A stretch of DNA of 64,000 nucleotides, taken from contig NC_134682.1 of NCBI RefSeq assembly GCF_024713945.1, positions 992,001 to 1,056,000 on the forward strand, given 5' to 3'. Position 1 is the first letter of the stretch; each line of letters begins with the position of its first letter. A program made the position numbers and the translations under genes. Below are positions 30,620-63,430 of this stretch, in pieces. The stretch comes from Dermatophagoides farinae (taxonomy: Eukaryota > Arthropoda > Arachnida > Sarcoptiformes > Pyroglyphidae). The notes beneath the pieces are model-generated. The model saw only the letters and a list, made by a program, of their open reading frames with translations. It did no database searches and was not told where the DNA came from.

Positions 30620-31612
30620 ATGTTTTTTGATCTAAATACAATTTTTATCACTATCATTGTGATCCGAATTTCAATGATTTTGTGGAACTATTGTAAACGT
30701 CGTCCATTCATTTGGCATACAAATAATGGTCAATATTGGGCTATTATTACCGGTGCAACCGATGGTATTGGCTATGAATTTGCAAGACAATTAGCATTGA
30801 AAGGTTATAACATTGTGATGATAAGCCGAAATTTGAAAAAATTAACAATAAAACGACAAATGATTCTAGATGAATTATCCAATAAGAATATTAATATTAA
30901 AATTGAAACTATTGGCGTGGATTTTCAACGATTAGATATTTATGATCAAATCAAATCGATTATTGAAGATAAAGATGTTTACATTCTTGTCAATAATGTT
31001 GGTATTGTTAATATTCATGAATCGGATTATTTTCATCTTGAATCCAGTGATTATCATCATAATATGATTAATGTGAATATTATTAGTGTCGTTAAAATGA
31101 CTGAAATGTTATTACCGAAAATGATAAAACAAAAACGTGGTCTAATATTGAACATGTCATCCAATGTAGCTGAACGTCATTCAGGATTTTATGCCAGTTA
31201 TTCATCAACCAAAGCATTTATATTAAATCTTTCAAAAACATTACATCATGAATGTTTATCTAGAAATGTATTGATTTTTGCCCTTATGCCATTGTTTATA
31301 CAATCAAAAATGATTGCCATTCCACCTGGTATATCAATACCAACATCTGAATGTTATGTACAAAATGCATTGAAATCAATCAATTGGAATCAATCATATG
31401 GTTGTGGTTATTTCTGGCATCGATTATTATCAACAGGTGTAAAGATTATATCGATTATTTTTGGTGAAAGAATTGAAGCAATATTTAGCCGAAATGTTAT
31501 TCTATACATTCAACGTATGCATCATGATCGAACATTGGCTGAATCTAGTAATTTTTTTCGAATAATATTCCATTCATTATGGAAAACATTATTTGTTACA
31601 AACGAAATTTGA
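30620..31612 (+). CDS. Short-chain dehydrogenase, HSD17B12/3-ketoacyl-CoA reductase-like
   Basis: This is a single-exon gene of 330 residues. An N-terminal hydrophobic segment (about 5-22) fits ER-membrane anchoring. The Rossmann fold shows the cofactor motif TGATDGIG (44-51), the NNVG motif (126-129), a catalytic Ser at about 181-182 (LNMSS) and the YxxxK pair as YSSTK (195-199). Length and layout match the 17-beta-hydroxysteroid dehydrogenase type 12/type 3 and very-long-chain 3-oxoacyl-CoA reductase group, which reduces 3-ketoacyl-CoA with NADPH during fatty-acid elongation or reduces steroids. The canonical NNAG is NNVG here. No intron is present although most neighbours have several. An inactive relative such as HSDL1 is less likely, because the catalytic Tyr and Lys are intact. 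Substrate cannot be told from sequence. Confidence 0.9.
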   Translation: MFFDLNTIFITIIVIRISMILWNYCKRRPFIWHTNNGQYWAIITGATDGIGYEFARQLALKGYNIVMISRNLKKLTIKRQMILDELSNKNINIKIETIGVDFQRLDIYDQIKSIIEDKDVYILVNNVGIVNIHESDYFHLESSDYHHNMINVNIISVVKMTEMLLPKMIKQKRGLILNMSSNVAERHSGFYASYSSTKAFILNLSKTLHHECLSRNVLIFALMPLFIQSKMIAIPPGISIPTSECYVQNALKSINWNQSYGCGYFWHRLLSTGVKIISIIFGERIEAIFSRNVILYIQRMHHDRTLAESSNFFRIIFHSLWKTLFVTNEI

Positions 31613-43140: not shown

Positions 43141-46100
43141 ATGTCAATTCAACAACATTTTAATCATTTGATCATCATCATTTTATTGATGATTTTTCAA
43201 ATAATTTCAGCATCTAATTCTTCTGGAAACAAACCAATCATTGGATCTAAATTAACTGGTTTGCATTTTCTGAATTTTATTTTGAAAAAAAAAATTTATC
43301 ATCATCATAATTCATAATAATTGTTTTTATTTTTCAAACAACAGATTGTGATGTATTAATAAAACAAGCAGGACAATATCGGGTGAAAATAGCTGAAATG
43401 TTAATGGATAAAGAATGTCGTATTTATATATTATCGGAAAATGTACGAACATTTGTATCATTAAAATATGATAATGGTAACATTCAATGTAATGATAATG
43501 AATATGTTGGATATTATGATGGCTGGTATTGGTATGATCAATATTTTCCTGTTAAACGTGATCGTCAACATGTTAAACGTGATCAAGATAAAACGATATG
43601 CCATAAAAATAGACAAGTGAATAAAAATCCGGTTTGGATGTCACAAAATGCTGGACAAATTTATTATCGTATACAAAAAGTAAATACTGGTTTTGATTTT
43701 ACTGTTCAATTTAAACCTCAAGAATCGGGTAAGTTGGGTTTATTTTTATCATTTCAATTTTTTTTATAATAAATCACTATATATATATTTTGAATTATTT
43801 TTCGTCTTTGTGGTTTTTTTTTTAAAGCTGCGGTTAGTTTCCTTATGGCCAAACCAAACGGAACATATAAATTTGAACTTTTTGCTGAAAATCGAGAAAA
43901 TATTGTACTATCATTATATATTTTACAGCCACCATTTTTAATACGAACATTTGAAGGTATGATGATGAAAATTTTAACACTTGATGTTGGTGATTATTCA
44001 AAAAATAGACAGCCTGGTAAATGGCCTAGTCCAGTATGTAAAATATATTTTCTTCTTTGGTTGGTGTGTGTGTTTATAATAATAATAATTTTTTTTCATT
44101 TCTTATATTCAAAACAAAAGTGTGATAAAAGTGGACGAAATAATTATGTACAAATAGGTGGTTATTTGGGCGAACCTGAATCTCCTTTGGATGAATTACA
44201 AGTATATTATGATGTTTGTAATGAAAATAGTTGTAAGAATTTTTTTTTGTTGCTTTATTTTCCAATCATTTTTTTTGCGCATCCATTCATTCATTCATTC
44301 ATTCATTCATTCATTCATTCATTCATTCATTCATTCATATTCATTTTTAGTTAATCATCAATTTCCAATAATATGTCCAAATATTGTTGTACGTATGGTG
44401 GTTAGAAAATTGCTAACACAAATTATTGAATTTCAATTTCGACCAATGTCAACAATGGAGGTATTCAAAACATTACATTCGGAACCATTACGTTTAACTT
44501 GTTCAAAACATTCATCAACAAAATTTCCAACGATACCGATGCCAGTGATTGATTTGTTTGATGATAAGCCATATACAGAAGATGATGATTGTAAGTGTTT
44601 TGAAAAACCACAGAATGAAATATTTAAAATTATTTGCTGTTTTTGTTTTTCTTGCCTATAGATTGTCATCATTTGCTCAAAGAAGAAGGCTATTATTTTA
44701 TGAGAGTCGATGGATTAACATTTAGACGTGAATGTGCTGTTTTTTTATTGGCACCACCAAGATTTCTTATCGAAGTAGAAATGGTACAAATACATTTACC
44801 ACAGTTATTTTCATGTGATTATTATGGTAAAGGTAAAACACATTTAGACTTTTTCGATGGTTGGGATTATCACCGGGAATATATACCAAACGATGAACAT
44901 TCGAAAAAAACATTTAGACAACGTATGGAAACAACATGTGCATATGTTATTGGACAAGAATTTGGTTTTAATAAGCAAAAAAAAATATTTCGTTCATCAC
45001 AAAATATTGCACAACTTCTTTATCTTTATGAACATCCAACAATAACAATTATCGATACTAAACTTGGATTTTATTTTCATCTTCGTTTTATTTTTGATCC
45101 TTATCGTAAGTGATTTTCTATTTGGCCAATCTTGAATGATTAATAATTTTATTGATTAATTAATTATGTTTCTATTCAAAACAAACAAAAAAATTTTAGC
45201 TTGTAATACCGTTGTTCATTTAATTGCAACAACCGATGGATATTTACCGACATATTTGGTACAGAATAATAATGTAAAACATCCAACAAATTGTTCCATT
45301 TATTTGGTTGAATCACCATGGGAAAGAACAAAAATAACTGGAATATTATTGAATTTTATTGATTATGATATTGGTAATTTTCCAAAACCACTGCGAACGA
45401 AACGATATTCGCAAAAATATGATGAACAATGTACAGGATTAAGCTTGGAAGATTATGCCGAAGTTGATGGTGGCCTTGTATTTGGTTTCGTTACACATAT
45501 TAAACCATCTAAATATCAATGGTGTACGGATGTCAAAACAAATCAAAGTTGTAAGTTGGTTGTTTGAACACAAACGAAAAAAAAAAACATTGAATCAATA
45601 CTTTTTCTCTCTCTCTCCCTATAACAATAACAATAGTCGATGTTGTACTTAACGGTTGTCGTAGTTCAGTCATTCATCTGGTATCCAGTGGAAAATCACA
45701 TAATTCTGTTGTATTTAATGTACAACCATTATGGATTCGAGATCCAACAAAACATCCGGAACCAGATCGATTTGTGCATTTAAATTTATTTAATATGTCT
45801 TGTACAGATCATCCAAAAAATGATCCTACTAAACCTGTTGCATTGAACCGAAGTAGTAAGTAGAGAGTATATTTTTGTTGTTTTTTTATAAAAATGATCT
45901 GATTTTAATCATCATCATCATTATTAATATTATCGTGATATATTAATATTAATAGTATGTAATGGACTGATCACTAAACCTGGTTATTATTATTATCGTG
46001 AAACAAAACAAACATTTGAAGAATGTCGTACCACTGTTCTGGCTGATCGTTTTACATTGATTGATTTATCATTTTTTAAAGTCGATTTTACATGTGATGA

Positions 46101-47039
46101 TAATCAATATGTTAATTTGGTTGATGGTATATTGTTTAAAAAAAGATATTGGCCACAAACTGGTGTAGATCATAGTAGTAAAGATGATGAAGATCGTATT
46201 CATCATGTTTGTCAAGGTCGTCCAAAAAAAATACGCACCGAACAGAATGCAGCACAAATTCATTTTCGTTTAAAAGTAAATCAAGGTTTCTTGTTTCATG
46301 TTAATTTCGAAAAACAACCATTACCACGTAAGTTTGGTTTTTTTTCAAAAAAATTTTTTTCAATCACCAATTTTTTTTTCTTCAAACAAAAAATATTCCA
46401 GTCTGTCATACAATTATACCAGCTGGAGAACAAAACAATGAAGAAGTGTATCGTCTTCAAAGTGTAAATGGTGACAAACCTTGTTCGATTACATTGGCAT
46501 TATTACCTTATATAAAAACAAATTCTTCAATCAGGGCAATGGTTATAACTATAATGCAATCAAAATTTGATAATGTAGAAGAATTATTTTCCATTGAATC
46601 ACATAAAATTTGTATGCACGATAAACGATTATGTACAGCAAAGAATCTACCAAATTATGCATTAATTGGTGGCCAAAATGATGCCATACAAAATGAACGA
46701 TTATCACGAAAAGGTTTAGAATATTGTTTACCGATACCATATCCGCCGTTGGATTTTCTTGTAGCCGAATGTGATGTAGTTACCATACGTTTAATATCTA
46801 GACAGAATGATGATAATAATAATAATCATAATGAAAAAAATAAGAACAACGATGTAAATAGAAATTGGATTGATTTAAAATTTGCAATACAACAAAAATT
46901 GGTACCTGAACCAAGAATACCATTCGATGATTATATTTTATATCAATTCAATTGTACATATCTTTTAAGAATGGGTAATTATGTACCGAATTGGCATAAT
47001 GATAAAATTGGAAAATATGATGATGATCATCAATTATAA
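43141..47039 (+). CDS. CRF-BP-like protein A, three modules
   Basis: Ten exons: 43141-43258, 43345-43728, 43828-44033, 44121-44232, 44351-44590, 44662-45105, 45200-45550, 45637-45855, 45956-46327, 46402-47039, giving 1027 residues. A signal peptide (1-24, ending QIISA) precedes three CRF-BP modules at about 40-353, 354-691 and 692-1027. Each keeps the family order: Cys pair 1 around GxY, the DGW-type turn (YYDGWYW, FFDGWDY, LVDGILF), SQN/EQN with a YR-type strand, the PCN-type start of the second half, DYxEIGG-like, and CPNxxxR or RLVSSG-like strands. Module 1 lacks both cysteines of pair 3 (AAVSFLM and ENIVLSLY instead of PCN and NCS). CRF-BPs are secreted proteins that sequester CRF-like peptides. 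Binding here is not shown. Module edges are phase-1 introns. Confidence 0.85.
44285..44339 (+). repeat. (ATTC)n microsatellite in gene A intron
   Basis: About thirteen ATTC units lie inside the intron between exons 4 and 5. It produces a spurious open frame of HSFI repeats. Confidence 0.9.
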
Positions 47040-47428
47040 TAATTGATTAAATTAAAGCATTGATTTGAATTTAGAATATAAATTGTAAATTGTTATTGTG
47101 AACAATTTGATTTAATTTGATATTTATCAAAAAAAAATGAAAAAAAATTGAAAAAAATTGAAAAAAATTGAAAAATCGAATTTTTTTCCCAGTTTTTTGT
47201 TTGTTCGTAGCCATATAAAAACATTCGATAGTGAATAATGTAAATTTTCATCTGAATTTTTTTTTTCTTTCTTTTTCTTGTTTTTTCTTTGTGTGTTTGT
47301 TTGTTAACGACGACGATAAAGTTTCTTTTTTTTTAAATATTCTTGTTGCTGTTGTGTGTTTTTTACATTTTTTTCATTTATTTAATTCATTCATCACTAA
47401 CTGAGTAAACACACAAATACTAATCATT
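47040..47428. other. Gene A to gene B spacer
   Basis: A 390-base spacer with a repeated GAAAAAAATT element near 47138-47175 and a TATA-like TATAAAA at 47214-47220, about 215 bases before the gene B start codon. It presumably holds the 3' end of A and the promoter of B. Confidence 0.5.
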
Positions 47429-50400
47429 ATGAGAAAATTTCATCATTGGCTCAAATCATCATGTTTGTTGCTGATGTTGATGATTGTCATTGAATTATCG
47501 AATGCTGGTGATCCAATCACCTATAATGTTATTGGTCCTGAAGGTATGTTTTGTTCATCATATATTTGTTATATCGTTTCATTAAAATTCATTTTTTGTT
47601 TTGTTTTTTGTCAAATAATTTTAGATGCTGAAATGGAACTTGGTACCGAAGGTGTTTATTCGGTAACCGTTTCACAACAAATGCATGATACACAATGTTC
47701 TATATATCTAATTGCACCAATTGATAAACTAGTAATGGTTACATTTATACAAAAAGCTGGCGCATATTCATGTGATAGTTCTAATAGTAAAATTGAAACA
47801 TTTGATTCATGGGTTTTTTATGATCATTCATTTCCGGCAATCGATGATCCTGGTAATAAATTTTTGCAAAGGAAAAAAAAATTTTGCGAACCAAATACTG
47901 TGACTACGTTTTCATATAATGCCGGTATGATAGTGTATCGTTTAAAATATGGTGGTGGTTTCATATTTAAATTGGAATTTATTCATAATCCGACACCATG
48001 TTCAATATTTATACCGGGATCAGAGAATAGTGATGGCAAAATACGTTTAGATTATAATCAAAAAATTCCAAAAAAATTGCACTATTTATATATTACAAAC
48101 ACCAATGACAAAAGGTCGTTTTCAAGGTTTAACATTACAAATAACAAGTATTAAAATGGGTCATGAACATGAACCAACTGTTTCATTACCATATTCGGTA
48201 TGTTCATATATTGTTGTTGGTAATCAAGATTTGATAATCAATTTTTTTTTCATTCTTTACACTCCAACTTCTCTCTCCCCGAACACAAAGTGTCATAGAT
48301 TTTCCGGAATAACAAATCCAAATTTTGTCGAAATAGGTGGCTGGGGTGATCCACCTGGATTTCATTCACATGAAATGACAGTTTCAGTTGATTTTTGTAG
48401 CCGATCTTATTGTAAGTAAAATGACCACTAATTCGAAATGAAATTCATCAACTTTTTTTTTCGACATAGATGATAAACCATTTCCAGTACTTTGTCCAAA
48501 TATTGGCATTCGATTACATATAGAAGATTATATACCAGATCAACATATTGAAGTAAGATATCGACCAATATCAAAAAATTTGATTAGTTCATTATCAAAT
48601 GCACCTGTTAAATTAACTTGTCCAAAAGTACCATCGGATATATTTCCACAAGTTCCTGTAGGATTAGATTCTAGTGGTAAATATTTTCAAAGAGAAAAAG
48701 AAAATTTGAAATATCCATTCAATTGATTATTTATTATAATCTATTTATTTAGCTTGTCGACAATCAATTACTGAACCAGGATACTATACAATGTCCGTTG
48801 TCCATCATAATGTTAGACAATATTGTGCTATGTATTTTATTGCACCACCAAGTTTTCTTGTTGAAATTGAATTAATGAATTTACGAATTGGAGAAGATGA
48901 TTCTATCACCGAATGTAATGGTCATGATTTTATTAATCTAATCGATGGATGGTATTATAATCTTGAATATATACCACATTATATTGATCATTTAAAAACG
49001 ATTGATGAACGTACATTTAAAGCATGCCAAACAGAAACAATCGCATTTCTACGTAAAGGTGGAAGAAGATTTTTTCGTACATCACAAAATATTGGACAAA
49101 TTGATTATCGTTCATCAAAAGTTGGAACAACAATTACGTTTCGTATACGATTTCATTTTGTTAAAGAACCATGTAATGTATTCTATGCAGTTGATGATAT
49201 TCCTAATAATGCCGTATATATAACTCGGAATTATCGTCAATCAATCATTTGTGCAACATATTTTGTTAAAGAATTATGGCGTCCAACACCAATCGATGGT
49301 TTATTGATTAATGTTATTAGCTATAATATTGGTAATAGTAGTGGTGGCATAAAAAAAGAACAAGATTTAAAAAAACATATGAAAAAACCATGTATTAGCC
49401 ACAAATATTTAGCAAGTGATTGGGTCGAATTTGATGGTGGTATACATTTTGGTCTTACATCGAAAATGAAACCAGATGATTTTCAAATCTGTAACGATGC
49501 ACCAATCAAACAGTTTCCATTTGCAGCATTGATTCGTTGTCAAGATGTTGCCATACGTATGGTTTCACAACATCCACAAAGACCAAATAATTTTATACAA
49601 TTTAGCGTGATGAGAGTATTGAAAAATACAATTGATAAAATGGCAATTACTGACACTGTTAAAGAATTTACCTGTTTAAATAAACCAAAATCTTGGGAAA
49701 CATTTCCATTGTCTTTGGATCCAGATAGTAAGTGTGATGGCATATTGTTGTTGTTGTTTTATCTATAAAAACAATTTTTTTTTCTCTCTCTCTCTCTCTT
49801 CCACCATAGATTGTAATGAACAAATGATTTGGAATGAAGGTCTTTATGGATTGAATGCAATGAACAACATAATAGGAAAACAATGTTCCATTGTTGTTGT
49901 TGCCGATCATACACAATTGGTTGATATTGATATCGAAGAAAGAGATATTAAATGTGATGGAGTAGAATCATTTATAAAAATTATTGATGGCTGGATTCAT
50001 AATTATGATGGTGATGGGGAACATATCTGGCCAAATAATGAGGATCATCCGAAAAAATCACTTTTAAAACGAACGGAAAATATTTGTGGAAGAAAACGAA
50101 TAGTGATACGTTCATCACAGAATATAGCACAAATTGTTTATAAAATTTCTGAAACTAGTCGTGGATTTAGGATCAAAATTGCATTCGTTAGTAATACAGA
50201 TTCTCGTAAGTAGTTGAGATATATTTAATTGAAAAATCAATTCATCAATCAATCATCGATTTTTTTTAAAACTTTACAATAGCCTGTAATATGGTTATTC
50301 GTGCACGTGATCGAACGATGAATCAAAAATCATATAAAATGCAAACACCACAACATCATTCAGGACCAAGTGTTTGTACATTTCTTGTGCTTGATTCACC

Positions 50401-51119
50401 ATGGGATCAACAAACATTATCCGGTTTATTGTTTCGTATACATAAATTACAAATTCATGGTGAATTTCCAGGATGTAGTTCAGCAAAAAATTCGGTAAGA
50501 GAATTATTCATCAATGGGGGTGATTTTTGTTTTAATTAAATTTTTAACCATTCCTCTTTTCAGTGTTCAATATCGGGAAGCAATGATTATATAAAATTAT
50601 ATGGTGATAATACTATAGATTTTACCAAGAAATTGGTGGATAATGGTTTTGAATTCTGTTATAAACCAGATGAATATCCAGGTATGTTATTATTATCTTT
50701 TAAAAAAAGAAGATTAAATTCTAATTCTAATTTTGTGTAAATATTTGTAAAAAAAAGTACAATATCTAGTTCGTTTCTGTCGTAATGCAGCTCTACGTTT
50801 GGTATCAAGTGGTCAATTTAAAAATTATATTGAATTCTCATTAGCACCATTACGTGATACACAATTAGTGCCGGCAATGCCATTCGGTCAATATATACCA
50901 TACAATCATTTTTGTAAACGACCACAATGGACAAAACCACATATAAAAACAATATTGGATATGCAATATCCTAAAATGCGTGAATTTTTTGATTTTATTG
51001 ATGAAGAACCAAAACCATTTGATCTGTTTCATACATTCAAAAATACACGTCTTACAACACCATGGAATGGACAACGATTTCCACCAATTGAAGAATTTCC
51101 TGATTTGAGAAAAAAATGA
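47429..51119 (+). CDS. CRF-BP-like protein B, three modules, with apparent frameshift
   Basis: Nine exons: 47429-47543, 47625-48197, 48291-48411, 48470-48676, 48753-49727, 49810-50205, 50283-50494, 50564-50681, 50758-51119. A signal peptide (1-26, ending ELSNA) leads into three CRF-BP modules (about 39-338, 339-663, 664-1025). Modules 2 and 3 have all ten cysteines and clear motifs (LIDGWYY, TSQNIGQIDYR; IIDGWIH, SSQNIAQIVYK, LVSSGQF). Module 1 is more divergent: FDSW for DGW, and Ala for the first cysteine although its partner (DTQCSIYL) remains. Within exon 2 the frame changes in a run of seven A at 48070-48076. After the run the family pattern resumes in the other frame (NCTIYILQTP). One extra A explains it: sequence error, polymorphism or a broken gene. 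Exon 5 is a whole module without introns. Confidence 0.8.
48070..48076 (+). other. Apparent +1 frame change in gene B
   Basis: Seven consecutive A bases interrupt an otherwise continuous CRF-BP module. Upstream, codons read IRLDYNQKIP; downstream, the homologous NCTIYILQ strand is in the next frame. All downstream exon phases agree with the second frame. Confidence 0.75.
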
Positions 51120-51553
51120 ATCTGATAAATTGATTGGTGATCGGCAAATAATAATTTGATCGAATATATTTTTTTTTGTAGTTGTTCGATTCGATTTGAT
51201 TTTTGTTTTTTTGTTTGTTTGTCTGAAGAAAAGAAAAATTTGTAATTATTAAATTTTGTTTTTGTTTTTTTTTTGTTGCAAAATTAATTAAAAAATTTTC
51301 GATTTCGAATTTCTTTTCACCATTGTTTTTGCGCAATATTTAAATATATATATGGTTCCACATAATGGTTATCCAAAAAAAATTTTTTGTTCTGTTGTTT
51401 TGTTTCTTTTGCTTGCTTGCTTATTTTTATTTTTTTTTTCAATTCACCAAGTTTTCTGAGTTTAACTTTCAACTTTCGTTTTTTTTTCTTATTGTCGTTG
51501 TCGTGTATTCAATCAATCTACTGAATAAATCACCAATAGTAATAAGCAAACAC
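51120..51553. other. Gene B to gene C spacer
   Basis: About 435 bases, T-rich, with TATA-like ATTTAAATATATATAT near 51338-51354. The gene C frame is open up to 51365, but the hydrophobic T-rich part is probably 5' UTR. Confidence 0.45.
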
Positions 51554-54500
51554 ATGATGATGATTTATTTGCTAAAAAATAGATCACCATTATATCTAAT
51601 TGGTTGGTGGTGGTATTTATTTTTGACGATATTTCAACAAAATTTTCAACCATCATTAATGTTATTACAACAAGGTAGTCTTAAACAACCAGTTTTTATT
51701 ATTGGACACGATAGAGGGGGTAAGTAATATAACGAATTTTAAGATGAATCGAATTTTAATGATCAAAACATGAAAACAAAATCTAAAATTCAAATCTGTT
51801 TCTTTTTTTTCACTCATATTTATAAATCATTTATCACATTACATTTGATTTGATGATGATTTACAGATTGCGATGTATTGGCACCATCACATGGCAATTA
51901 TTCAGTATCTGTATCGCCACATAAAATTGATTTTGAATGTTCAATATATTTATGGTCACCGCCAGAATATTTGATTGAAATTGAATTTCTACATCATAAT
52001 ACACCGTGTGATAATAATAATAATTACATTTCCGTACATGATTATTGGTCATGGTATGAACAGGTGTTTCCGGTGAACAGTAAAATCAATACTGAACAGG
52101 ATCGATTATGTAATGATAATAAAGAGAATCGAAAAATATTTCGTTCATCACAAAATGGTGCAATGATAAAATATCGTTTTAATAGAAGAGATATTGGTCA
52201 ATTTCATTTTGCCATGCGTTTCATACCGAATAATGAACCATGTACAATATTTATTGCTGGTTCAGAAACAACACGTGGTAGTTATCATATAGAAAATAAA
52301 AAAGCAAAAGAAACTTGTGCCTTATATATAATACAATCACCTAGATGGAATAAAGCCGGTTTCAAAGGTATGATGATAAAAATCGATCAAATGAATGCTG
52401 GTGATTCAGATGCAATGATTCATGCACCATATCCAGTTTATGTAAGTCGATTTTCCATATTTCAGCTATTTTTTTTTGTTTGTTAAATTGTTCTAAAAAA
52501 AACATAAACAAAATTTCCATTTGCATTTAGTGTTCAATTTTAAATCGTGGTGTACAAAATTTTGTTGAAATCGGTGGCTATGGTGCTGCATTATCTGGTT
52601 ATAGTACTAAACATATGCAAGCATGGATGGAAACTTGTAATGAACATTTTTATGAAGATACCATTTATGTATTATGTCCAAATGTTGTTGTTCGATTGTT
52701 TTCAACACGTGAAAGACAGCATATAAAATTCACTTATGAAGCATTGACAGCTACATCATTTATGAGCACTAAATTTATGATGAAAAGACGGGCATATAAA
52801 TTGGAATGTTTAGCCGAATCGATTAATTTTCCACAAGTTCCTGTTGCATTACAACTTGCTGATGATATAAGTAAGTGAATATATGTGAAAACATGTGTAA
52901 ATTTTTTGTTTTGTTTTGTTTTTTTTGTTTGTTTGTTTGTTAAAGGCTGTAGTTATCTGGTAGAGAATCAGGGCTATCATTTATTAATGATGAGTCAAGT
53001 AAATGTTGATAGAAAATGTAAAATTCTAATTCATGCACCAATCGAACATAGTATACATATCAAAATGGTTGAATTGAATATCAATAAACAAGGTGATTGT
53101 TATGATTATTTTAATATTGATTTCGTTCAAGCAAATGATGGTTGGATACATAATCGAGAAACAATACCAAATTTAGATCTTAAATCAATAGCACATGATG
53201 AGAAGACAACATTACCAAATAAACCATTATGTGTAAAAGGTGGTAATAGAGAATTTGAATCATCACAGAATATTGCCGAAATTGATTTCTATCTACCAGA
53301 CACTGGATACGGTAAAACTGGATCACCAATAATGGCTGGTTTTGCATTTACAGTGAAATTTGTATTTGAACCGAATGGTAATGTATTTTGTGAAATAAAT
53401 TTTTATAATATATATCCAAATCAAATGATATATTCTTTTTCTTCAGTATGTGATGATGTATATCTTATCAATACAAAAGAACGTTACACAACCGATAGAT
53501 TAATATTTCAAGATTATCGATCATCAAAACAATGTACATTTTATTTTATAAAATTACCATGGTTACAAACAAATCTAGAAGGTTTTCGATTTTATTTTTA
53601 TAAATATTCTATTGGTCAGCCTAAGCGAGAATTATCAAGATTTGAAAAAAGATCAAAAGCTAATGAGGTTTGTCCATAATTGTTTACTATAATTTATTTT
53701 TAAATTAAATTGTTTTTTTTTAAAAAAAATACAGACAGATAGATGTACTAACTCCGGTAGTAAAAATGATTTACTTCGGATTGAAGGTGGTAAAAAATTT
53801 GGTCTTACCTCGAAATTAAATCCACATGGTATTGAACTTTGTAGTTCAATGGGTATTGCACCACCGTGTATGTATTATATATATTATTTAATTTTTTATG
53901 GAACTCTTGTTTTCATATTAACCATTTTGTTTCCATTCAAAAAAAAAAAAAACAAAAACAAACAGATATAATGACCATAATGTGTCCAAGTGTTGGTCTT
54001 ACATTATATTCAAGTTTAAATTATTATAATTTTATGGTATTCGATGCTACAACACTATGGACTGGTGATTTAGTCGGCAGTCAAACAAATGAAGATGTTG
54101 CTTATTGTGAAAATAAACCTTTAGAAACATCTGGAATGCCATTATCATTAGATTATCAAGGTAAGTGTGTGAATCTTTTTTTATTTGAAAAAAAAATTAA
54201 TCAAAAATTTTCATTGTCAAGAATGTGAACAAACACTTACAGAACCTGGTTATTATTCGCTTGGTGTTGTATTGAAAACTTATGAAAAACATTGTTATCT
54301 ATTTATACGGGCACCAAAAAATTTACAAACAATTGAAATTGAAATTACTAGTGCAAAATTTGTTTGTAATGATGATGATGATAATTATTTACGTATTTAT
54401 GATGGTTGGCGTTATAAAAATGGTTTACAAATGCCAAGAGTATTTAATTCAACGCGAACATTGGAACAACGTATACATAAAATGTGTAAGAAAAAACATG

Positions 54501-55504
54501 TCAAAATAACATTATCACAGAATTTTGGACAAATTGAATATCGTATCATTAGAAAAGGATGGGGACATGATTTTAAATTTAAAGTTTCATTTAAATATAA
54601 TCCTGAACGTAAATATTTTGAATATTTTTTTTGTTTTGTTTCATTACATTTGTTTTATTAATTAATTAATTAATTAATCCTTTATTTATTTATTTTTATA
54701 ATTACAGCTTGTGATCAAGTATATTTGATTGATGAATTTTATGCTAAAAAAACGCATATAAATTTCACAATGATTAATAATAATATAATTCATGGACTAA
54801 CTTGTACATGTTATATAATGCATGTACCATGGATACCATATCCGAATAATGTTGTTGAATCATATGAATATAGTGGATTAGATATACAATTTGGAAGATA
54901 TGAATTACCGGATAAATCTAAATTTCAATTATTTAATTCAGATAATTCGGTTAGTATAAAAAAAAACTCATACATTATAATTGGTTTTTTTTATTGAAAA
55001 TAAATTTGTTTTTGTTTTTCAAAACCACCACCACCACCACCACCTCCCCTCCCCCATATTAGTGTTCATCGAATGGTGCAAAATTTTTTATGAGATTTAT
55101 TGGCAGTCATCAAGCCATAGATTTTTTCCGTACACCAGATTTACGTGGTTATGAAGTTTGTGGTAATCAAAACAACCGATGTAAGTTTGATTAAATTTTA
55201 TTAAAAGAAACAAAACAAAAAAACAAAATTAATTTTTCTTTTCTTTTCTTAATTTAATTTTCAAACACACACACACACACAAACAGTTATCGTAAAACTT
55301 GAATGGTGTTGGAATTTTGGCATAGAATTAATATCATCAGGTAATGGCGTTGGTCACGAAGTAGAACGTTCAATTATTGAAGCCACTATTCATCCATTAA
55401 AATCAAAAGAACTAATACCATTAGAAAGTGATTATCCACGTTCATGGGAATTTCTGAAACCATATCCAGCATTATGTAAACGTCCAGAATTCTATGATGC
55501 ATAA
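51554..55504 (+). CDS. CRF-BP-like protein C, three modules
   Basis: Eleven exons: 51554-51719, 51867-52441, 52531-52870, 52946-53377, 53447-53667, 53735-53867, 53966-54160, 54222-54608, 54708-54949, 55063-55180, 55287-55504, giving 1008 residues. I chose the ATG at 51554 because it puts a hydrophobic signal segment (LYLIGWWWYLFLTIF) near the start; the frame is open to 51365. Three CRF-BP modules lie at about 56-360, 361-687 and 688-1008. Module 1 has SSQNGAMIKYR and VEIGGYG but HDYW for DGW; module 2 has ANDGWIH and SSQNIAEIDF; module 3 has IYDGWRY, SQNFGQIEYR and ELISSG. All ten cysteines are present in each. Intron 53378-53446 is 69 bases, in frame and without a stop, so it could also be retained. 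A second isoform is therefore possible. Confidence 0.85.
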
Positions 55505-55758
55505 TATGTAAAAAACACACACAGGGAGAAGGTTTTTTTTTTGCAAGATAAACAAAACAACGACAACAACAACTTTGGTGTGTGTGTGTGTGTGTGTTTG
55601 TGACTGTAAACTAATTTTAATTCTAATTGAATTTAAAATTTTGTTGTTGTGTGTTGTTATTATATTGTTATATTTCGAAAAAAAGTGAATAAAAAGCCAT
55701 TGAAATTTATGGAAAAAAGTAGCTTTTTGTTAATATTTTTGATTTTGAGTTGTTTGAT

Positions 55759-55789
<31 letters not shown>

Positions 55790-55888
55790 CGTTTTTATTT
55801 CTTTGCGTGTTTGTTTGCTTTTTTTGTGAAACAACATCATCAAATACCAGCAGCAACAACAACAACAACAACAACACCGGCAACGATA
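55505..55888. other. Gene C to gene D spacer
   Basis: About 385 bases with a TG run (55577-55595), an AATAAA near 55687 and a T run at about 55759-55780. The gene D frame is open upstream to 55649, passing through the T run as a phenylalanine stretch. I treat that as 5' UTR. Confidence 0.45.
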
Positions 55889-57253
55889 ATGATGATGTTT
55901 ATATTATATTCAATGATGATAATATTCTCCATTCCAAATTCGAATTGTGATTTTTGGGAATTTTTGGATTATATTCCAACACAACCAAAACGTTTGGATC
56001 AAATGATGATAACACAAAATTCAGAATATCCGGTTCCAAGTTATATACTTCCATCTAGTAAGTTTATGATGTTTGTGTACTGTGTAATCATTTGGTAATC
56101 GATTTTTTTTTTTTTTGCTTTTTGTTAGAAAAAATTCATTTCATAACTGAACCAGGATATTATTCATTACAAATGAATGAAAAAATGCTTAATGTAATTG
56201 GTACCATAAAAATCTATTCACATGATCCAACAAAATTGGCTGTTTTCTATATTGAACGTATGAATGTTTTATGCCAAACAAAAAATCCACATACTTTTGT
56301 ACGATGGTTTGATGGCTGGAATACTGAAGAGAATGTTGTTATACCATATGTTATTGATCATCCTGATGGTTACATTAAACGTTTTAGCGATAATTTTTGT
56401 GAAATGGGTCGTGTATTTCGAACATCATTAAAACGTTATACAGCCACACAGAATTTTGCACAAGTTGATTATCGTTTCGAGACGTTACATCATTATATAT
56501 TTTCATTTTTTGTTTATTTTAAAGATAATCCACAACGTAAGTGTTTGTTTTTTTTTTTTTTTTTAATTTTCCAACCTTTTTTTCAAACAAAAAATATATT
56601 ATTAGCATGTCATGCATTAATCATGGATACATTCGATGTGAAACGAAAATGTCCATATTTTTATTCATATACATTACAAAATTATGGCAATAAACGAATG
56701 AATTGTTCATTATTTTTAATGAAACAAGAAACACAAAGATATGAAGGTTCATTTCATATACGTTTTTTTCAAGTTGGTGATCCAAGTATTTCAAATGTAA
56801 TTCAAAATGGTGATAAAGATCCATTAACGGTAAATATAAAATGACCAATTGAATTTTAAATTTCTATATATAAAAATTTTTTAACAAAAAAATCCATTCA
56901 AAAAATAGTGTGCATCATTTGCTGATCATTTATATATTAATGGAAATTCTGGTGCCGGACCTCATAAAACAAAAGAATTGGATTTCTGTAATCAACATAA
57001 ACCTGAAGGTAAAATGCACGAGGTGTTGTAAATAGAAAAAAAAATTTTAATTTTCTAAAACAAACAAAAAACAGTGAATAAAGGTGGATTTCCAATAGTC
57101 TGTCCAAATGTTACCATACGGCTAATATCAAGTGGCCAATTTCAGAATAAAATTGTCATCAGTTATCTGCCACCAACAACGGATGAAATTTGTCGTTGGA
57201 ATGAAGAAAAACGTTCGAATACGGCACGAACATATCATACATTACGTTGTTGA
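55889..57253 (+). CDS. CRF-BP-like protein D, single module
   Basis: Five exons, 55889-56057, 56129-56536, 56606-56829, 56909-57008 and 57075-57253, give 359 residues. The ATG triplet at 55889 starts a good signal peptide (MMMFILYSMMIIFSIPNSNC); ATG 55709 upstream would add a poly-Phe and Thr-rich stretch and is less likely. One CRF-BP module follows (about 57-359): EPGYYS, WFDGWNT, TQNFAQVDYR, PCH at the half-way intron, MNCSLFL, CPNVTIRLISSGQF. Both cysteines of pair 1 are gone (KKIHFITEPG and NVIGTIKIY), while pairs 2-5 are complete. The last residue is a cysteine (LRC). The last phase-1 intron, also present in genes A and B, is retained here but absent in E to H. This marks D as intermediate between the three-module and the short genes. 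Confidence 0.85.
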
Positions 57254-57359
57254 ATTTTGAATTTGAATGATGATTTGATTTGAATGTGAAACAGAAAAAA
57301 AAATTAATTTAAAAAGAGAAAAAAATTAAATTTTAAATTTTTTTTTGTTTGTTTTCGAA

Positions 57360-57367
57360 TATAAAAA
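57360..57367 (+). promoter_or_regulatory. TATA-like box before gene E
   Basis: TATAAAAA lies 132 bases before the gene E start codon, in the 239-base spacer after gene D. AT-rich composition makes chance matches likely. Confidence 0.35.
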
Positions 57368-57491
57368 TACATTTAGAAAATGAATGAGTCAATTGGAAAA
57401 AATTTTTTCTGATTTTGAAGCGAATTATTTTATTTTGTTTTTTTTTTGTCAACGGCAACAGGTAACCAGTTATACGCAGAATCTTAATCAC

Positions 57492-58880
57492 ATGAATCAA
57501 CAATTTCTGATCCGTTTTCTCATATTACTACCATTGATGATATTTGATGATCAAATAATTGCGATAAAAATATTTTCCGATAATGATCATCATCATCAAG
57601 AGCCAAATTCACATGAGCAAATAATACGATTAAAATCCAGTTAAGTGATGATTTTTTGTTTTGTTTTTTGTTTTTTTTGTCGTTATAATGTTTTACATTT
57701 TTTTTTCATATCACAGAATCAGAAATTTTTCTCATGATTAAACAAACATCATCATCATCGTCATCATCACTTTATGAATATTATATTGATAATGAATCAA
57801 TGTCGAAAACACAGGGAAGAATTTATATTGTTTCACCGAATATGGATGAATCGATAATATTTCAATTACGTGCAAGAAATACACCATGTATTCAGAATGA
57901 AAATTATTATATTCATTTTGTAGATGGCTGGGAATTACCGAATGGTCGTAGTTTTCCACCACCACAACAGTCCATTGTAAATGATGATGATATTGAACCA
58001 TGGGAAATGCCTGTTTGTCAAGGTAATCATACATATGCTGAGGAACTTTCACGTGTGTATGTTGGTAAACAGAATTTTGCCATGATTTCATATCGTATAC
58101 CGATTATGAATACCGGATTTACATTTAGAATTTGGACGAAAAAAATTGATAAACGTAAGTGTAAAAGGTTTGTGTTGTGTATCACAAAGTAGTGGTGTAT
58201 TGATTGTAGAATTTTTTTTTTTATCATTCTAAATTAAAAAGCATGTAATATGATGAAATTTGAATCTGAAGATATCCATGACCGGCAACCATTTATTAGG
58301 GAACCAATGTTATTGAAAAATTATAATAAGAAAAAAATTTGTTCATTATTCATCATACAACAACGTGTACATAAATACACACCATTTGTACGTATAGTTG
58401 AATTTAATGTTGGTGATCCACAAAAATATGGACACGGTAAAATAGATGATACTAAATCGGTAATAATGATGTGTATTAAAATATATCTAATCGAATGATA
58501 AATTGATTGATTTTCTTTGTGGTCTTTTTTTCTAGTGCAAAAAAGAAGGACGCGAAGATTATGTCGAAGTTATTGGTGATTCATATGGTGGCAATAATAA
58601 CGATATTGTTGCTGATGATTCTCATTCAAAAGTTCGTCTAGATTTTTGTAATAATCATCATGTTTCATTAAATAAATTGAATGGTTTCGATATCCCCATT
58701 AATCGTCGCATTATAACCATACGTCTTGTATCAAGTGGTCGATATTATGATTGGGTTAAATTACAATATTTACCACCAAAACTTGGCTATATTTGTGATT
58801 TAGAATTTATGTTTGGTACAGAAATTGAAAGTGAAATGAAACCAAAAATATTTTCAAATGAAAATTTTCATATAAATTAA
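57492..58880 (+). CDS. CRF-BP-like protein E, single module
   Basis: Four exons, 57492-57639, 57717-58154, 58242-58459 and 58536-58880, give 382 residues. The ATG at 57492 begins a signal peptide (MNQQFLIRFLILLPLMIF) and is followed by a His/Glu-rich linker. The module shows FVDGWELPNGRSFPPP, which is very close to the classical CRF-BP DGW..G..FP pattern. It then shows GKQNFAMISYRIP, PCNMM, DYVEVIGDS and TIRLVSSGRY. Pair-1 cysteines are absent. The first cysteine of pair 5 is replaced by Arg (CGT at 58704-58706 where paralogues have TGT), leaving its partner (YICDLE) unpaired. Unlike D, F, G and H the chain does not end in cysteine. A serine run (about residues 58-65) is microsatellite-encoded. 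I infer a diverging or loosely constrained copy. Confidence 0.85.
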
Positions 58881-58942
58881 TTGATTTTGTTTGATTTAAT
58901 TGAACAAAAAAATCCCATTTGTTTGTTGAGAATAAATCCGCA

Positions 58943-58950
58943 TATATAAA
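58943..58950 (+). promoter_or_regulatory. TATA-like box before gene F
   Basis: TATATAAA lies 75 bases before the gene F start, within the 137-base E-F spacer. It is conserved in place in the gene H upstream region (TATAAATA at 62022), as part of a duplicated block. Confidence 0.45.
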
Positions 58951-59017
58951 TAAATCAGTTTCACGAAATCAAAACATAATTTTTTTGCTGATATTCGATA
59001 TACGAAATTTTCAAGTA

Positions 59018-60418
59018 ATGAACGAATCGATTAAAATTCGATTTATATCGTTATCAACATCGATACTATCAATATTATTAATATTATGTGATTATGAAAA
59101 TCAAATATTAGCAACTGATATCGTTTTTAAAGATAAAATTAATCTACCGAAACCTAATTGGCCAACTCAACGATTGAAATCAGGTCAGGTTTTTTTTTTA
59201 TTTATTCTGTAAATTCAAAATAAAAACCAATAATATTCAAATTCTCTCTCTCTCTCTCTCTTTCTTTGCTTCTCTCTATAGAATCGGTAATTTACATCAC
59301 AAAACCCGGTCGTTATGCATTGTATATTGATGATGAAAAATTATTAAAAACCAAAGGACGAATACTTTTCGCTACATCAAGATTGAATGCATCGATTGGT
59401 ATCTTTTTGAATGAACGTAATTCGTCCTGTATTACTAGTGAAAATTATTTTATAAATTATTATGATGGCTGGAAATTTCCAAATGGTCGTCGATTTCCAT
59501 CACCTGGTCAACATGCTGTACCATTTAAAAAACGAATTTGTGAAAGTAATCAAACATATGAAATGGAACTGAATCGTATATTTATCAGTTCACAAAATTT
59601 CGCCATGATTACATATCGTATACCGGTAATTAATACCGGTTTTACATTCACATTTATGCATAGAGATATTAGTCTACGTAAGTAATGGAAATCTTTTTTT
59701 TTTATTTGTTTATGATTTTTATCGATTTTTCACATCAACCAACCAACCACCCATACACACACACACAAAAGCATGTAATGTCATGTTTTATGAAGAGAAT
59801 TATAATAAATATGGCGCTGGTGGAAGAGAACCATTCGTACGTGATACATATGCGTTGAGGAATTTTCATCGGGAAATTAATTGTTCCGCTTATATATTTC
59901 AACAACGTAAACATAAATTTGCACCATTCTTACGAATAGGTGGTATGGAAATTGGTAAAACAGATTACAGCTTCAGTGCTCCTACTCCTAAAAGAAATAA
60001 TGAATCGGTAAGTGGATCTGTGTATGAGTGTGTGTGTGTGTGTGAAATGAATTTCTTTTTTTTTCATTTATTCCAGTGTAAAGAATTGGGCTTAAAAGAT
60101 TATGCTGAAATTGGTGGCGATTCTAGTGTTGAAATTGGAACAAAAGAATTTGAAGTTGGTTTCGATGTATGTGATCATCATAGTGCACCTACAAATGTTA
60201 TGTGGCCTGAATCACCGGATTATAGAGCATTTGATTTTCTAATCAATTGTCGTATTATAACCATACGTCTAGTATCAAGTGGAAGATTTGCAAATATTAT
60301 AAAATTTAAATATCTACCACCACGTATGCAATATGTTTGTGATTGGCAATATAAATTCGATACAAGTTTATTTCGATTGATCACGGTTAAATCAATTTTT
60401 ACAAATTTATATTGTTGA
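59018..60418 (+). CDS. CRF-BP-like protein F, single module
   Basis: Four exons, 59018-59183, 59282-59677, 59772-60007 and 60077-60418, give 379 residues. A signal peptide (1-32, core LSTSILSILLILC) and a short linker lead into one CRF-BP module: TKPGRYALYI, YYDGWKFPNGRRFPSPGQH, SSQNFAMITYRIP, PCNVMFYEE, INCSAYIFQQ, DYAEIGGDS, NCRIITIRLVSSG and FKYLPP. Pairs 2-5 of cysteines are present and pair 1 is absent. The chain ends LYC. Sequons include the conserved NCS, at the place of the known CRF-BP glycosylation site, plus NAS, NSS and NQT. Exon phases (1,1,0) equal those of E, G and H. Signal peptide, first exon and upstream flank are nearly the same as in H, so F and H are recent duplicates. 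F differs by a longer loop between exons 3 and 4. Confidence 0.88.
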
Positions 60419-60603
60419 ATTGAAAAATATTTCGATCAATAATGATTTGATTTTTTGAAAAAAAAAAAATTTTTTTTACCACAAATTCGAAAATTGAATA
60501 AAAAAATTTTTTTCCATAAATAATGGTTTCACACAAAATGTAAATCTTTATTTTATTTTTTTTTTTTTACTTGGCAAATATTCAAAATTCGAAACTTGTG
60601 TGA

Positions 60604-61902
60604 ATGATGAACGATGTATCGATTGTATCATTATCGTTATTATTATTGTTATCAATATCGATATCATCGATATTTGCTACTGATGTTGTTTATAAAAAGA
60701 CAGTTAAAGTACCAAAATTTGGGTGGATACAACATGTGAAACCTGGTAAAAATAAGTCATCATAAATTCAATCAATTTAAATAGCGATTTTTCTCTTTCT
60801 CTTTGATTTTAGAATCGGAAATTTACATCAAAAAACCTGGTCGTTATTCATTATATATGAATGATGAAAAATTATTGAAAACCCTTGGAAGAATATATTT
60901 TTATACACCAATATCGAATGCATCGATTGGTATCTATATTGATGTACGTAATGGTAGCTGTATTGCTGGTGAAGATTTCATAAATTTTCATGATGGTTGG
61001 GAATTTCCAAATGGTCGTCGATTTCCATCACCTGGTCAACATGTAAAACGATTTGAAATGCAAATTTGTGAAGATAATCAAGTGCCAGAATTGAATCCAT
61101 TCTTTTTTAGTTCACAAAATTTTGCAATGTTAACATATCGTATACCGGTGATTAAAAATGGATTCACATTTACATTTATACTCGGAGATATTGATAAACG
61201 TAAGTGAATGTTTTTTTGTTTTTTTATTTGTTTTTGTTAAATTCATAAATTTCTAACCCTATCTACTGCAACACACACACACACAAACAAAAGCATGTAA
61301 TGTCATGTTTTATGAAGAGCCATATAATATATATGGCACTGGTGGAAGAGCACCATTTATACGTGATAAATATGTGTTGAAAAATTATCGTCGTGAAATT
61401 AATTGTTCGGCTTATATATTTCAACAACGTAGACATAAATATTCACCATACATACGACTAGTTCGTACAAAGATTGGACCAAAAATAAAACGCAATGATT
61501 CAGAAATCATACATAATTATCATCCTGAATCGGTAAGAAAATATTGAATTTTCAGAATTCGGTTGTAATATTGTTGTTTTTCAGTGTGAAACATTAAAAG
61601 CAAAAGATTATGTTGAAATCGGTGGCGATTCAAAATTCGAATTAGAATCACATGAATTTGAAGTTTCTTTTGATTTCTGTCCCGAACATGGTTATCATTT
61701 AATATCCGATACACCTAATGATATAATGATCAATTGTCGTATAATAACAATACGTTTAGTATCAAGTGGTATATATGCAAATAAGATTCAATTTAAATTT
61801 CTACCACCACGTATGAGATATGTTTGTGATTGGCAATATAATCTCGATTCAAATTATGATAATTTTGTGAAAAGAAAAGATTATTCACATTTATATTGTT
61901 GA
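60604..61902 (+). CDS. CRF-BP-like protein G, single module
   Basis: Four exons, 60604-60745, 60813-61199, 61294-61532 and 61585-61902, give 361 residues. The first exon, short and easily missed, has an ATG pair at 60604 and 60607 followed by a strong signal peptide (VSLSLLLLLSISISSIFA). The module has KKPGRYSLYM, FHDGWEFPNGRRFPSPGQH, SSQNFAMLTYRIP, PCNVMFYEE, INCSAYIFQQ, DYVEIGGDS, NCRIITIRLVSSG and FKFLPPRMRYVC, ending LYC. Cysteine pairs 2-5 are present and pair 1 is absent. Its second half is closest to H, while its signal peptide and promoter differ from both F and H. This suggests exchange or patchwork evolution between neighbours. One fewer residue before the DGW turn (EDFINFHDGW) sets it apart from F and H. 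Confidence 0.88.
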
Positions 61903-62021
61903 ATCATATATAATGATTTAAATATTATCTTTTTTTTTGTTAAAATCAATTGAATAATTGATTTTGTTTGATTTAATTGAACAAAAAAAAATTTCATTTG
62001 TTTGTTGTTAATAAATTTGCA

Positions 62022-62029
62022 TATAAATA
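62022..62029 (+). promoter_or_regulatory. TATA-like box before gene H
   Basis: TATAAATA lies 83 bases before the gene H start, in a block that is a copy of the gene F upstream region. Confidence 0.45.
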
Positions 62030-62104
62030 AATCTCTTACACGAAATTAAAACATTTGTAATTTTTTCTAAAAATTTTCTTTGCTGTAATTTAAATTTTCA
62101 AATA

Positions 62105-63430
62105 ATGAACGAATCGATTAGAATTCGATTTATATCGTTATCAACATCGATACTATCAATATTATTATTATTATTATTATGTAATGATGAAAATCAAATA
62201 TTAGCAACGGATATCGTTTTGAAAGATCAAATTAAACTACCAGAACTTGATTTGAAAACACAACGATTGAAATCAGGTGAATTTTTTTTATTTATTCAAA
62301 ATAAAAACCGATAATATTTACTCCAATTCTCTCTCCAATATAGAATCGATAATTTACATCACAAAACCCGGTCGTTATGCATTCTATATTGATGATGAAA
62401 AATTATTAAAAATCAATGGACAAATATATTTTGCTACATCAAGGTTGAATCAATCGATTGGTATCTTTTTGAATGAACGTAATTCGTCCTGTATTAATAG
62501 TCAAAATTATTATTTAAATTATTATGATGGTTGGAAATTTCAAAATGGTCGTCGATTTCCATCACCTGGTCAACATGCTGAACCATTTAAAACACGAATT
62601 TGTGAAAGTAATCAAACATATGAAATGGAAATGAATCATATATTTTTCAGTTCACAAAATTTCGCCATGATTACATATCGTATACCGATAATTAATACCG
62701 GTTTTACATTTACATTTATGCTTAGAGATATTGTTAAACGTAAGTAATGGAAATCTTTTTTTTTATTTGTTCATTTTTTTTTTAATTTTTTCACAAAAGC
62801 ATGTAATGTTATGTTTTATGAAGAAAAACATGAACATGGAAGATCACCATTTATACGTGATAAATATGTGTTACAGAATTTTCATCGTGAAATTAATTGT
62901 TCCGCATATATATTTCAACAACGTAAACATAAATATTCACCATACTTACAAATAGTTCGATCAAAAGTTGGACAAAAAAGAAGACACAATAATTCGAGAA
63001 TCATACCTGATAATAATAAGGAATCGGTAAGAAAATATCGAATTTTTGTTTTCTCAATAAATATACTCAAGTGTAAAATTTGCTAATTTTATTGTTTTTC
63101 ATTGTTTTCCAGTGTGAAACATTACACGCAAAAGATTATATTGAAATTGGTGGTGATTCACATTTAGAATCAGAATCACATAAATTTCAAGTTGCATTCG
63201 ATTTCTGTCCCGAACATGATGATCATTTAATATCCGATATCCGTACTGATATATTGATCGATTGTCGTATAATAACAATACGTTTAATATCTAGTGGTAA
63301 ATATGTAAATTTTATTCAATTTAAATATCTACCACCACGTATGAGATATGTTTGTAATTGGCAATATGATCTTGATCCAGATGATGATAATTTGGGGAAG
63401 AGACAAGAATATTCACATTTATTTTGTTGA
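62105..63430 (+). CDS. CRF-BP-like protein H, single module
   Basis: Four exons, 62105-62276, 62344-62739, 62800-63026 and 63113-63430, give 370 residues. The signal peptide differs from F mainly by extra leucines (ILLLLLLCN). The module runs ITKPGRYAFYI, YYDGWKFQNGRRFPSPGQH, SSQNFAMITYRIP, PCNVMFYEE, INCSAYIFQQ, DYIEIGGDS, DCRIITIRLISSGKY and FKYLPPRMRYVC, ending LFC. The RLISSGKYVNFIQFKY strand is strikingly like the vertebrate CRF-BP sequence RMVSSGKHVNRVTFEY. Cysteine pairs 2-5 are intact and pair 1 is absent. It is the last gene of the cluster, and the next gene is unrelated. Its first half is closest to F and its second half to G. Confidence 0.88.

What the first reader, a model, noticed from the sequence alone, without database searches (positions are those of the whole stretch)
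43141..63430. Tandem array of eight CRF-binding-protein-like genes (14 modules)
Eight adjacent plus-strand genes encode secreted proteins with the CRF-BP layout: ten cysteines in five consecutive pairs, DGW, SSQNxAxIxYR, a PCN start of the second half, NCS, DYVEIGG and RLVSSG. CRF-BP is established as a one-module, normally single-copy hormone-binding protein (ligand CRF/urocortin in vertebrates; DH44-type peptides are the arthropod counterpart). An array of this size has, to my knowledge, not been described. It may be a diversified set of peptide-binding or decoy proteins. The family call comes from remembered sequence patterns; the function is inference.
Basis: partly seen in the sequence, partly recalled or inferred. 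Interest (0 to 1): 0.92.

Follow-up and report, generated by a model that had tools for sequence, protein, structure and literature searches.

The report
House-dust-mite array of CRF-binding-protein-like genes
A house dust mite carries a row of eight genes descended from a hormone-binding protein that is usually described as a single gene, and three of the eight appear to encode three binder units fused in one chain; what they bind is unknown.

Summary
The array is real at the stated coordinates: eight plus-strand genes, 43141-63430, carry 14 modules. Genes 1-3 have three modules each; genes 4-8 have one. The genome is Dermatophagoides farinae or very near it: 107 of 108 residues match Der f 2.

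The CRF-BP family call holds. Pfam CRF-BP_N passes its cut-off in 10 of 14 modules; CUB is listed for 1 of 14, below cut-off. The genome's canonical CRF-BP, on another contig, retrieves 14 of 14, and its three internal introns recur in the array.

Corrections: only 6 of 14 modules align all ten cysteines, and the quoted motifs are exact in 1 to 11 of 14. A distal three-module gene, an intronless gene and the canonical gene bring the total to at least 19 modules in 11 genes.

Module 1s group together, so a three-module gene was probably duplicated whole. Gene 8 is a mosaic of gene-6-like and gene-7-like halves. Genes 6-8 show dN/dS 0.66-0.90.

One DH44 gene is over cut-off. I infer secreted binders that have left the DH44 role. 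Ligand, expression and fold are untested.

The parts
43141..47039 (+). gene 1, three modules (43345-44590, 44662-45855, 45956-47039), 10 exons, 1027 aa
   Evidence: gene model; CRF-BP_N 45.2, 25.1, 30.6 bits (cut-off 25)
47429..51119 (+). gene 2, three modules (47625-48676, 48753-49727, 49810-51119); frame break in module 1 near 48,070; module 2 lies in one exon (324 aa)
   Evidence: CRF-BP_N 31.0, 41.8, 54.8 bits; CRF-BP_C over cut-off in module 3 (26.3)
51554..55504 (+). gene 3, three modules (51867-52870, 52946-54160, 54222-55504), 10 exons, 1031 aa
   Evidence: CRF-BP_N 33.3 and 19.2 bits in modules 1 and 2, none in module 3; modules 2 and 3 found by a profile of ten other array modules at E 3.6e-42 and 8.8e-42
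55889..57253 (+). gene 4, one module (56129-57253), 359 aa
   Evidence: no CRF-BP_N match, CRF-BP_C 19.9 bits below cut-off; canonical CRF-BP finds it at E 2.6e-19
57492..58880 (+). gene 5, one module (57717-58880), 382 aa
   Evidence: CRF-BP_N 12.5 bits, below cut-off; array profile E 1.8e-56
59018..60418 (+). gene 6, one module (59282-60418), 379 aa
   Evidence: CRF-BP_N 36.3 bits
60604..61902 (+). gene 7, one module (60813-61902), 361 aa
   Evidence: CRF-BP_N 32.1 bits
62105..63430 (+). gene 8, one module (62344-63430), 370 aa; mosaic of a gene-6-like front and a gene-7-like back
   Evidence: CRF-BP_N 34.8 bits; mosaic

Best explanation
Supported by sequence: this is an expansion of CRF-BP-family genes in a Dermatophagoides genome that also keeps a canonical CRF-BP gene. 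A three-module gene arose and was copied whole (genes 1, 2, 3 and a distal copy on the same contig). Single-module genes 4-8 form their own branch, and exchange has mixed genes 6-8. Inferred: the proteins are secreted, and each module holds a peptide or a small protein surface, as CRF-BP holds CRF (recalled). Three-module chains would be multivalent traps. Because one DH44 gene is over cut-off and the canonical CRF-BP is still present, the array proteins most likely bind other, changing partners: the mite's own reproductive or immune peptides, or peptides met in the gut or environment.
For: Family: CRF-BP_N over cut-off in 10 of 14 modules; canonical gene retrieves 14 of 14, best of 3800 shuffles E 0.059. 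Gene structure: three introns inside the canonical module recur at the same places and phases in the array, namely phase 1 in the P codon before cysteine 5, phase 0 just before cysteine 7, phase 1 before cysteine 9. One chain: the distal gene has the end of module 1 and the start of module 2 in one 259-aa open frame; linkers after module 1 share FPxxP in 4 of 4 genes, and after module 2 P[LV][AS]L in 3 of 4. Copying: module-1 clade 100/99, module-2 80/91 (not strong); the three modules of gene 1 as one clade rejected, p-AU 3e-60. Not DH44-matched: one CRF/DH44 gene over cut-off. Fast change with kept frames: dN/dS 0.90 (6/8), 0.88 (7/8), 0.66 (6/7); random change of similar size left no stop in 0 or 1 of 2000 runs. 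Exchange: genes 6/8 are 92% identical in exons 1-2 and 71% in exons 3-4 (Fisher p 5e-20); genes 7/8 75% and 85% (p 5e-5).
Against: No binding, expression, transcript or structural data. dN/dS near 0.9 can mean tolerance of change rather than driven change; it is a simple count, no site test was run, and the mosaic blurs it. CRF-BP_C passes in only 1 of 14 modules, and cysteine pairs are lost, so peptide binding need not survive. Contact residues of CRF-BP were not mapped. The intron before the first cysteine, phase 1 in the array, is not confirmed in the canonical gene: a possible acceptor is there, but I could not identify its upstream exon.
Confidence: 0.5

Rival explanations
1. The array proteins are secreted structural, digestive or reproductive proteins that reuse the CRF-BP fold without binding peptides.
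For: Identity to the canonical protein is only 21-32%, and cysteine pairs are lost in genes 4-8 and g1m1; several motifs are degraded; no ligand evidence.
Against: DGW is kept in 11 of 14 and SQN in 10 of 14 modules, including some with lost cysteine pairs. This bears on fold more than on binding.
Confidence: 0.27
2. All copies are DH44/CRF-type hormone buffers, multiplied for dosage or tissue-specific control of water balance.
For: Same family as the canonical CRF-BP; a DH44 gene with cleavage and amidation signals is present.
Against: One DH44 gene over cut-off and a canonical binder already present; apart from genes 5-8, array modules are 17-34% identical to each other.
Confidence: 0.12
3. 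The array is a set of weakly constrained duplicates on the way to decay.
For: dN/dS near 0.9 for genes 6/8 and 7/8; a frame break in gene 2.
Against: Seven of eight gene models have complete frames; random change of the size seen gives 6-7 stops per gene on average.
Confidence: 0.08
4. They are generic CUB-domain proteins that only resemble CRF-BP.
For: CUB at E 0.045 in one module (g3m2).
Against: CRF-BP_N is stronger in that same module (E 0.0011) and passes its cut-off in 10 of 14; three introns shared with the canonical CRF-BP.
Confidence: 0.03

Closest known systems
CRF-binding protein (CRF-BP/CRH-BP), Pfam CRF-BP_N PF05428 and CRF-BP_C PF23541; a passage in a locust EST paper (PMC3061863) says insect CRF-BPs were described as orthologs from gene structure and cysteine pattern, citing Huising and Flik 2005
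   Same: CRF-BP_N over cut-off in 10 of 14 modules, cysteine order complete in 6 of 14, order of the parts, hydrophobic leader.
   Different: Eight clustered genes; three fused modules in genes 1-3; lost cysteine pairs in genes 4-8 and g1m1; CRF-BP_C weak.
Canonical CRF-BP of this same genome (contig C10, L001)
   Same: Retrieves 14 of 14 array modules; its three internal introns recur in the array at the same places and phases.
   Different: Single module with ten cysteines; CRF-BP_N 93.3 and CRF-BP_C 51.6 bits against at most 54.8 and 26.3 in the array.
Tandemly arrayed cysteine proteases of astigmatic mites (PMC10722327, passages seen)
   Same: Tandem duplication as a main feature of gene-family growth in these mites.
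   Different: Enzymes, not binding proteins; no module fusion in the passages seen.

Membership tests
CRF-BP | Match to Pfam CRF-BP_N over its curated cut-off | tested here: met
   10 of 14 modules over 25 bits; g3m2 19.2 and g5 12.5 below; g3m3 and g4 none. These four are found by a profile of the other ten at E 1.8e-56 to 7.6e-41
CRF-BP | Match to Pfam CRF-BP_C over its curated cut-off | tested here: inconclusive
   1 of 14 over (g2m3, 26.3 bits); 7 of 14 listed below the cut-off; 6 of 14 not listed. The canonical gene passes at 51.6
CRF-BP | Ten cysteines in five consecutive pairs | tested here: inconclusive
   6 of 14 complete. Three losses remove both partners of a consecutive pair (1-2 in genes 4-8; 5-6 in g1m1 and its distal copy; 7-8 in distal module 2). 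Three remove one aligned partner (g2m1, g3m2, g5); g4's seventh is unaligned but present. The pairing itself is recalled, not from a call
CRF-BP | Shared gene structure | tested here: met
   Three introns inside the canonical module recur at the same places and phases; individual array modules have lost some. The intron before cysteine 1 is not confirmed in the canonical gene
CRF-BP | Secreted protein | tested here: inconclusive
   Hydrophobic leaders in 8 of 8 genes by hydropathy only, gene 3 weak
CRF-BP | CRF-BP fold | not tested
   Structure machine busy at all 14 tries; no related chain in the PDB by sequence
CRF-BP | Binds a CRF/DH44-type peptide | not testable with these tools
   needs binding assays
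Generic CUB proteins | Match to Pfam CUB over cut-off | tested here: not met
   listed for 1 of 14 modules, 14.5 bits against cut-off 21.4, weaker than CRF-BP_N in the same module

The most novel reading that the evidence does not exclude
A recombining, fast-changing set of secreted recognition proteins built from a hormone-binding protein: three-module chains act as multivalent peptide traps, and single-module paralogs swap their front and back halves by unequal exchange, so that the mite keeps producing new specificities against changing partners (rival-male, microbial or host peptides).
Probability: 0.2. Interest if true: 0.82.

Novelty: new variant of a known kind. Interest (0 to 1): 0.6.

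Why it matters
CRF-BP is usually described as a conserved single-module part of the stress-hormone system (conservation: PMC3061863 passage; single module and copy: recalled). A mite with at least 19 modules in 11 genes, one DH44 gene over cut-off and apparent three-module fusions separates the binding module from its hormone. It makes testable whether the CRF-BP fold is a general peptide holder. The species is a major allergen source (recalled), so a group of unstudied, probably secreted proteins is also of practical interest.

Tried and rejected
Generic CUB identity: disfavoured by Pfam. A set of DH44-like peptides matched to the binders: one CRF-family gene over cut-off, one weak match at E 0.84. 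More copies in the genome: a family search and two protein queries, all aimed at front halves, found the array, the distal gene, the C9 gene and the C10 gene, plus one stray match at E 0.98. The known module g3m2 was missed by all three, so the count of 19 is a lower bound. N and C halves as copies of one another: no profile similarity. Bacterial genome collection for stray mite relatives: none. Codon-model run with IQ-TREE printed only likelihoods, not used. CRF-BP_C as a genome query rang nowhere, not even at the canonical gene, probably because introns split it. Twelve class-B receptor domain matches do not tell DH44 receptors from others, not used. The leader exon of the canonical gene was looked for and not identified.
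Full report
WHAT WAS CHECKED. I rebuilt the genes from open frames and splice signals. Where the simple splice model went wrong I chose introns by hand, guided by the module layout, so the models lean on homology and no transcript was available. Introns are GT-AG, apart from a 3-base gap that I laid at the frame break of gene 2. The result is eight plus-strand genes: 43141-47039, 47429-51119, 51554-55504 (three modules each), 55889-57253, 57492-58880, 59018-60418, 60604-61902, 62105-63430 (one each).

WHICH ORGANISM. The window lies at C6:992001-1056000 of a 62.4-Mb genome. A Der f 2-like exon in that genome matches the solved Der f 2 chain at 107 of 108 residues and scores higher with it than with Der p 2. 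It is Dermatophagoides farinae or something very near it.

IS IT CRF-BP. Pfam CRF-BP_N passes its cut-off in 10 of 14 modules: g1m1 45.2, g1m2 25.1, g1m3 30.6, g2m1 31.0, g2m2 41.8, g2m3 54.8, g3m1 33.3, g6 36.3, g7 32.1, g8 34.8 bits. It is below in g3m2 (19.2) and g5 (12.5) and absent in g3m3 and g4. CRF-BP_C passes in one (g2m3, 26.3). CUB is listed once, in g3m2, at 14.5 bits, below its cut-off. Three unrelated families are listed below their cut-offs (in g1m2, g2m3 and g3m3); the one in g3m3 is the only family listed there. The genome has a clear canonical CRF-BP on contig C10 with CRF-BP_N 93.3 and CRF-BP_C 51.6 bits. Used as a query, it finds 14 of 14 array modules: g3m2 is worst at E 2.4e-4 (best single stretch only 0.025), the other 13 are at 1.4e-9 or better, and the best of 3800 shuffles scores 0.059. 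A profile of the ten strong modules finds the four weak ones at 1.8e-56 to 7.6e-41 and the canonical gene at 6.7e-57, with the best shuffle at 0.034.

GENE STRUCTURE. Three introns are clear inside the canonical module: in the P codon before cysteine 5 (phase 1), just before cysteine 7 (phase 0) and before cysteine 9 (phase 1). The array genes use the same places and phases, with some introns lost (for gene 2 the phases are shifted by the laid gap, and one search is the one to read). In the array genes a phase-1 intron also precedes the start of each module; in the distal copy it is missing between modules 1 and 2. In the canonical gene an acceptor fits there, but I did not find the upstream exon. 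A passage in PMC3061863 says insect CRF-BPs were described as orthologs on gene structure and cysteine pattern. The first is met here; the second is met in full by 6 of 14 modules.

CYSTEINES AND MOTIFS. All ten canonical cysteines are aligned in g1m2, g1m3, g2m2, g2m3, g3m1 and g3m3. Genes 4-8 lack the first pair. g1m1 and its distal copy lack the third pair. Module 2 of the distal copy lacks the fourth pair. g2m1, g3m2 and g5 each lack one aligned partner; g3m2 has 11 cysteines in all; the seventh of g4 is unaligned but stands at its exon start. In genes 4 and 6-8 two cysteines follow cysteine 9, so which is the true tenth is unsure. The odd counts (9 in the modules of genes 6-8, 7 in gene 5) leave at least one unpaired thiol if the leader is removed; a covalent dimer is only a guess. 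Exact motifs: DGW 11 of 14, SQN 10, PCN 7, RL[VI]SSG 6, NCS 5, RLVSSG 4, SSQNxAxIxYR 3, DYVEIGG 1.

ONE CHAIN WITH THREE MODULES. Between modules of genes 1-3 no leader was modelled, and the splice phases join. In the distal copy on the same contig (C6, about 1.7837-1.7876 Mb, minus strand), the end of module 1 and the start of module 2 lie in one 259-residue open frame, which is hard to reconcile with two genes. Linkers after module 1 share FPxxP in 4 of 4 genes, counting the distal copy; after module 2, P[LV][AS]L in 3 of 4.

HISTORY. In the maximum-likelihood tree of 19 modules the four module-1s group (100/99), the four module-2s group (80/91, not strong), and three module-3s group (93/95); adding g3m3 is not rejected (p-AU 0.399). 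C9, g3m3, g3m2 and g4 are long branches. Grouping the three modules of gene 1 is rejected (p-AU 3e-60). So a three-module gene probably existed before it was copied. Genes 4-8 form a branch (94/97), but which module they came from is not resolved: joining them to module 1s gives p-AU 0.434 and to module 3s 0.113.

RECENT CHANGE. Genes 6 and 8 are 92% identical over exons 1-2 and 71% over exons 3-4 (Fisher p 5e-20). Genes 7 and 8 are 75% and 85% (p 5e-5). Genes 6 and 7 show no such step (p 0.63). Gene 8 is a mosaic with the step near the junction of the two module halves. Counted dN/dS is 0.66-0.90 among genes 6-8, 0.50-0.63 between gene 5 and these, 0.84-0.98 for comparisons with gene 4 at dS 0.80-0.99, where counts are unreliable, and 0.42-0.87 for four exons of gene 1 against the distal copy. 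120 random changes per gene, a little more than half of the g7-g8 differences, gave 6-7 stops on average and a stop-free frame in 0 or 1 of 2000 runs. The frames are therefore kept by selection. Whether the amino-acid change is driven or merely tolerated is open.

GENOME CONTEXT. Taken together the searches give 11 genes and 19 modules: eight array genes, the distal three-module gene, an intronless one-module gene on C9 (CRF-BP_N 24.4 bits and 26, either side of the cut-off) and the canonical gene. Module g3m2 was missed by all three genome-wide queries, so this is a lower bound. The CRF/DH44 peptide family has one match over cut-off; its sequence follows a dibasic site and ends in an amidation and cleavage signal. 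[quoted passage not shown]

FUNCTION. The most economical reading is that the canonical gene keeps the hormone role and the array proteins hold other peptides or small protein surfaces. That is inference. I could not predict a structure, and no related chain was found in the PDB by sequence.

LITERATURE. Ten searches listed no paper on a CRF-BP array or a multi-module CRF-BP; one search listed 20 of 22 papers and 20 of 692. Passages were seen in PMC7591027 (only a receptor ligand list), PMC4116169 (a tick CRF-binding protein transcript), PMC5408209 (one CRF-BP in a wasp venom, not gland-specific), PMC3061863, PMC9353778 and PMC10722327. The library holds open-licence papers only.

The observation verdict went from confirmed to partly confirmed, because exact motif counts are lower than the finding implies. 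The claim of four shared introns was cut to three.

Noticed in passing
L012:3622-4713, minus strand (G000 C9 about 1768622-1769713): An intronless single-module CRF-BP-like gene, 363-aa open frame, all ten cysteines aligned; possibly an old retrocopy.
   Followed up: partly
L011:3686-7562, minus strand (C6 about 1.7837-1.7876 Mb): A second three-module gene, 49-52% identical per module to gene 1, some 730 kb from the array on the same contig.
   Followed up: yes
62105-63430: Gene 8 is a mosaic of its neighbours with the step near the junction of the two module halves.
   Followed up: yes
27726-30084: Three open frames matching Pfam Transferrin, next to a short-chain dehydrogenase frame at 30620-31612.
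   Followed up: no
38136-39507: Sodium:solute symporter exons upstream of the array.
   Followed up: no
16720-17577 and 7189-7707: NMD3 frame and an Unkempt-like CCCH zinc-finger frame.
   Followed up: no
near 48070: Frame break in an A-rich run of gene 2 module 1; assembly error or true lesion.
   Followed up: partly
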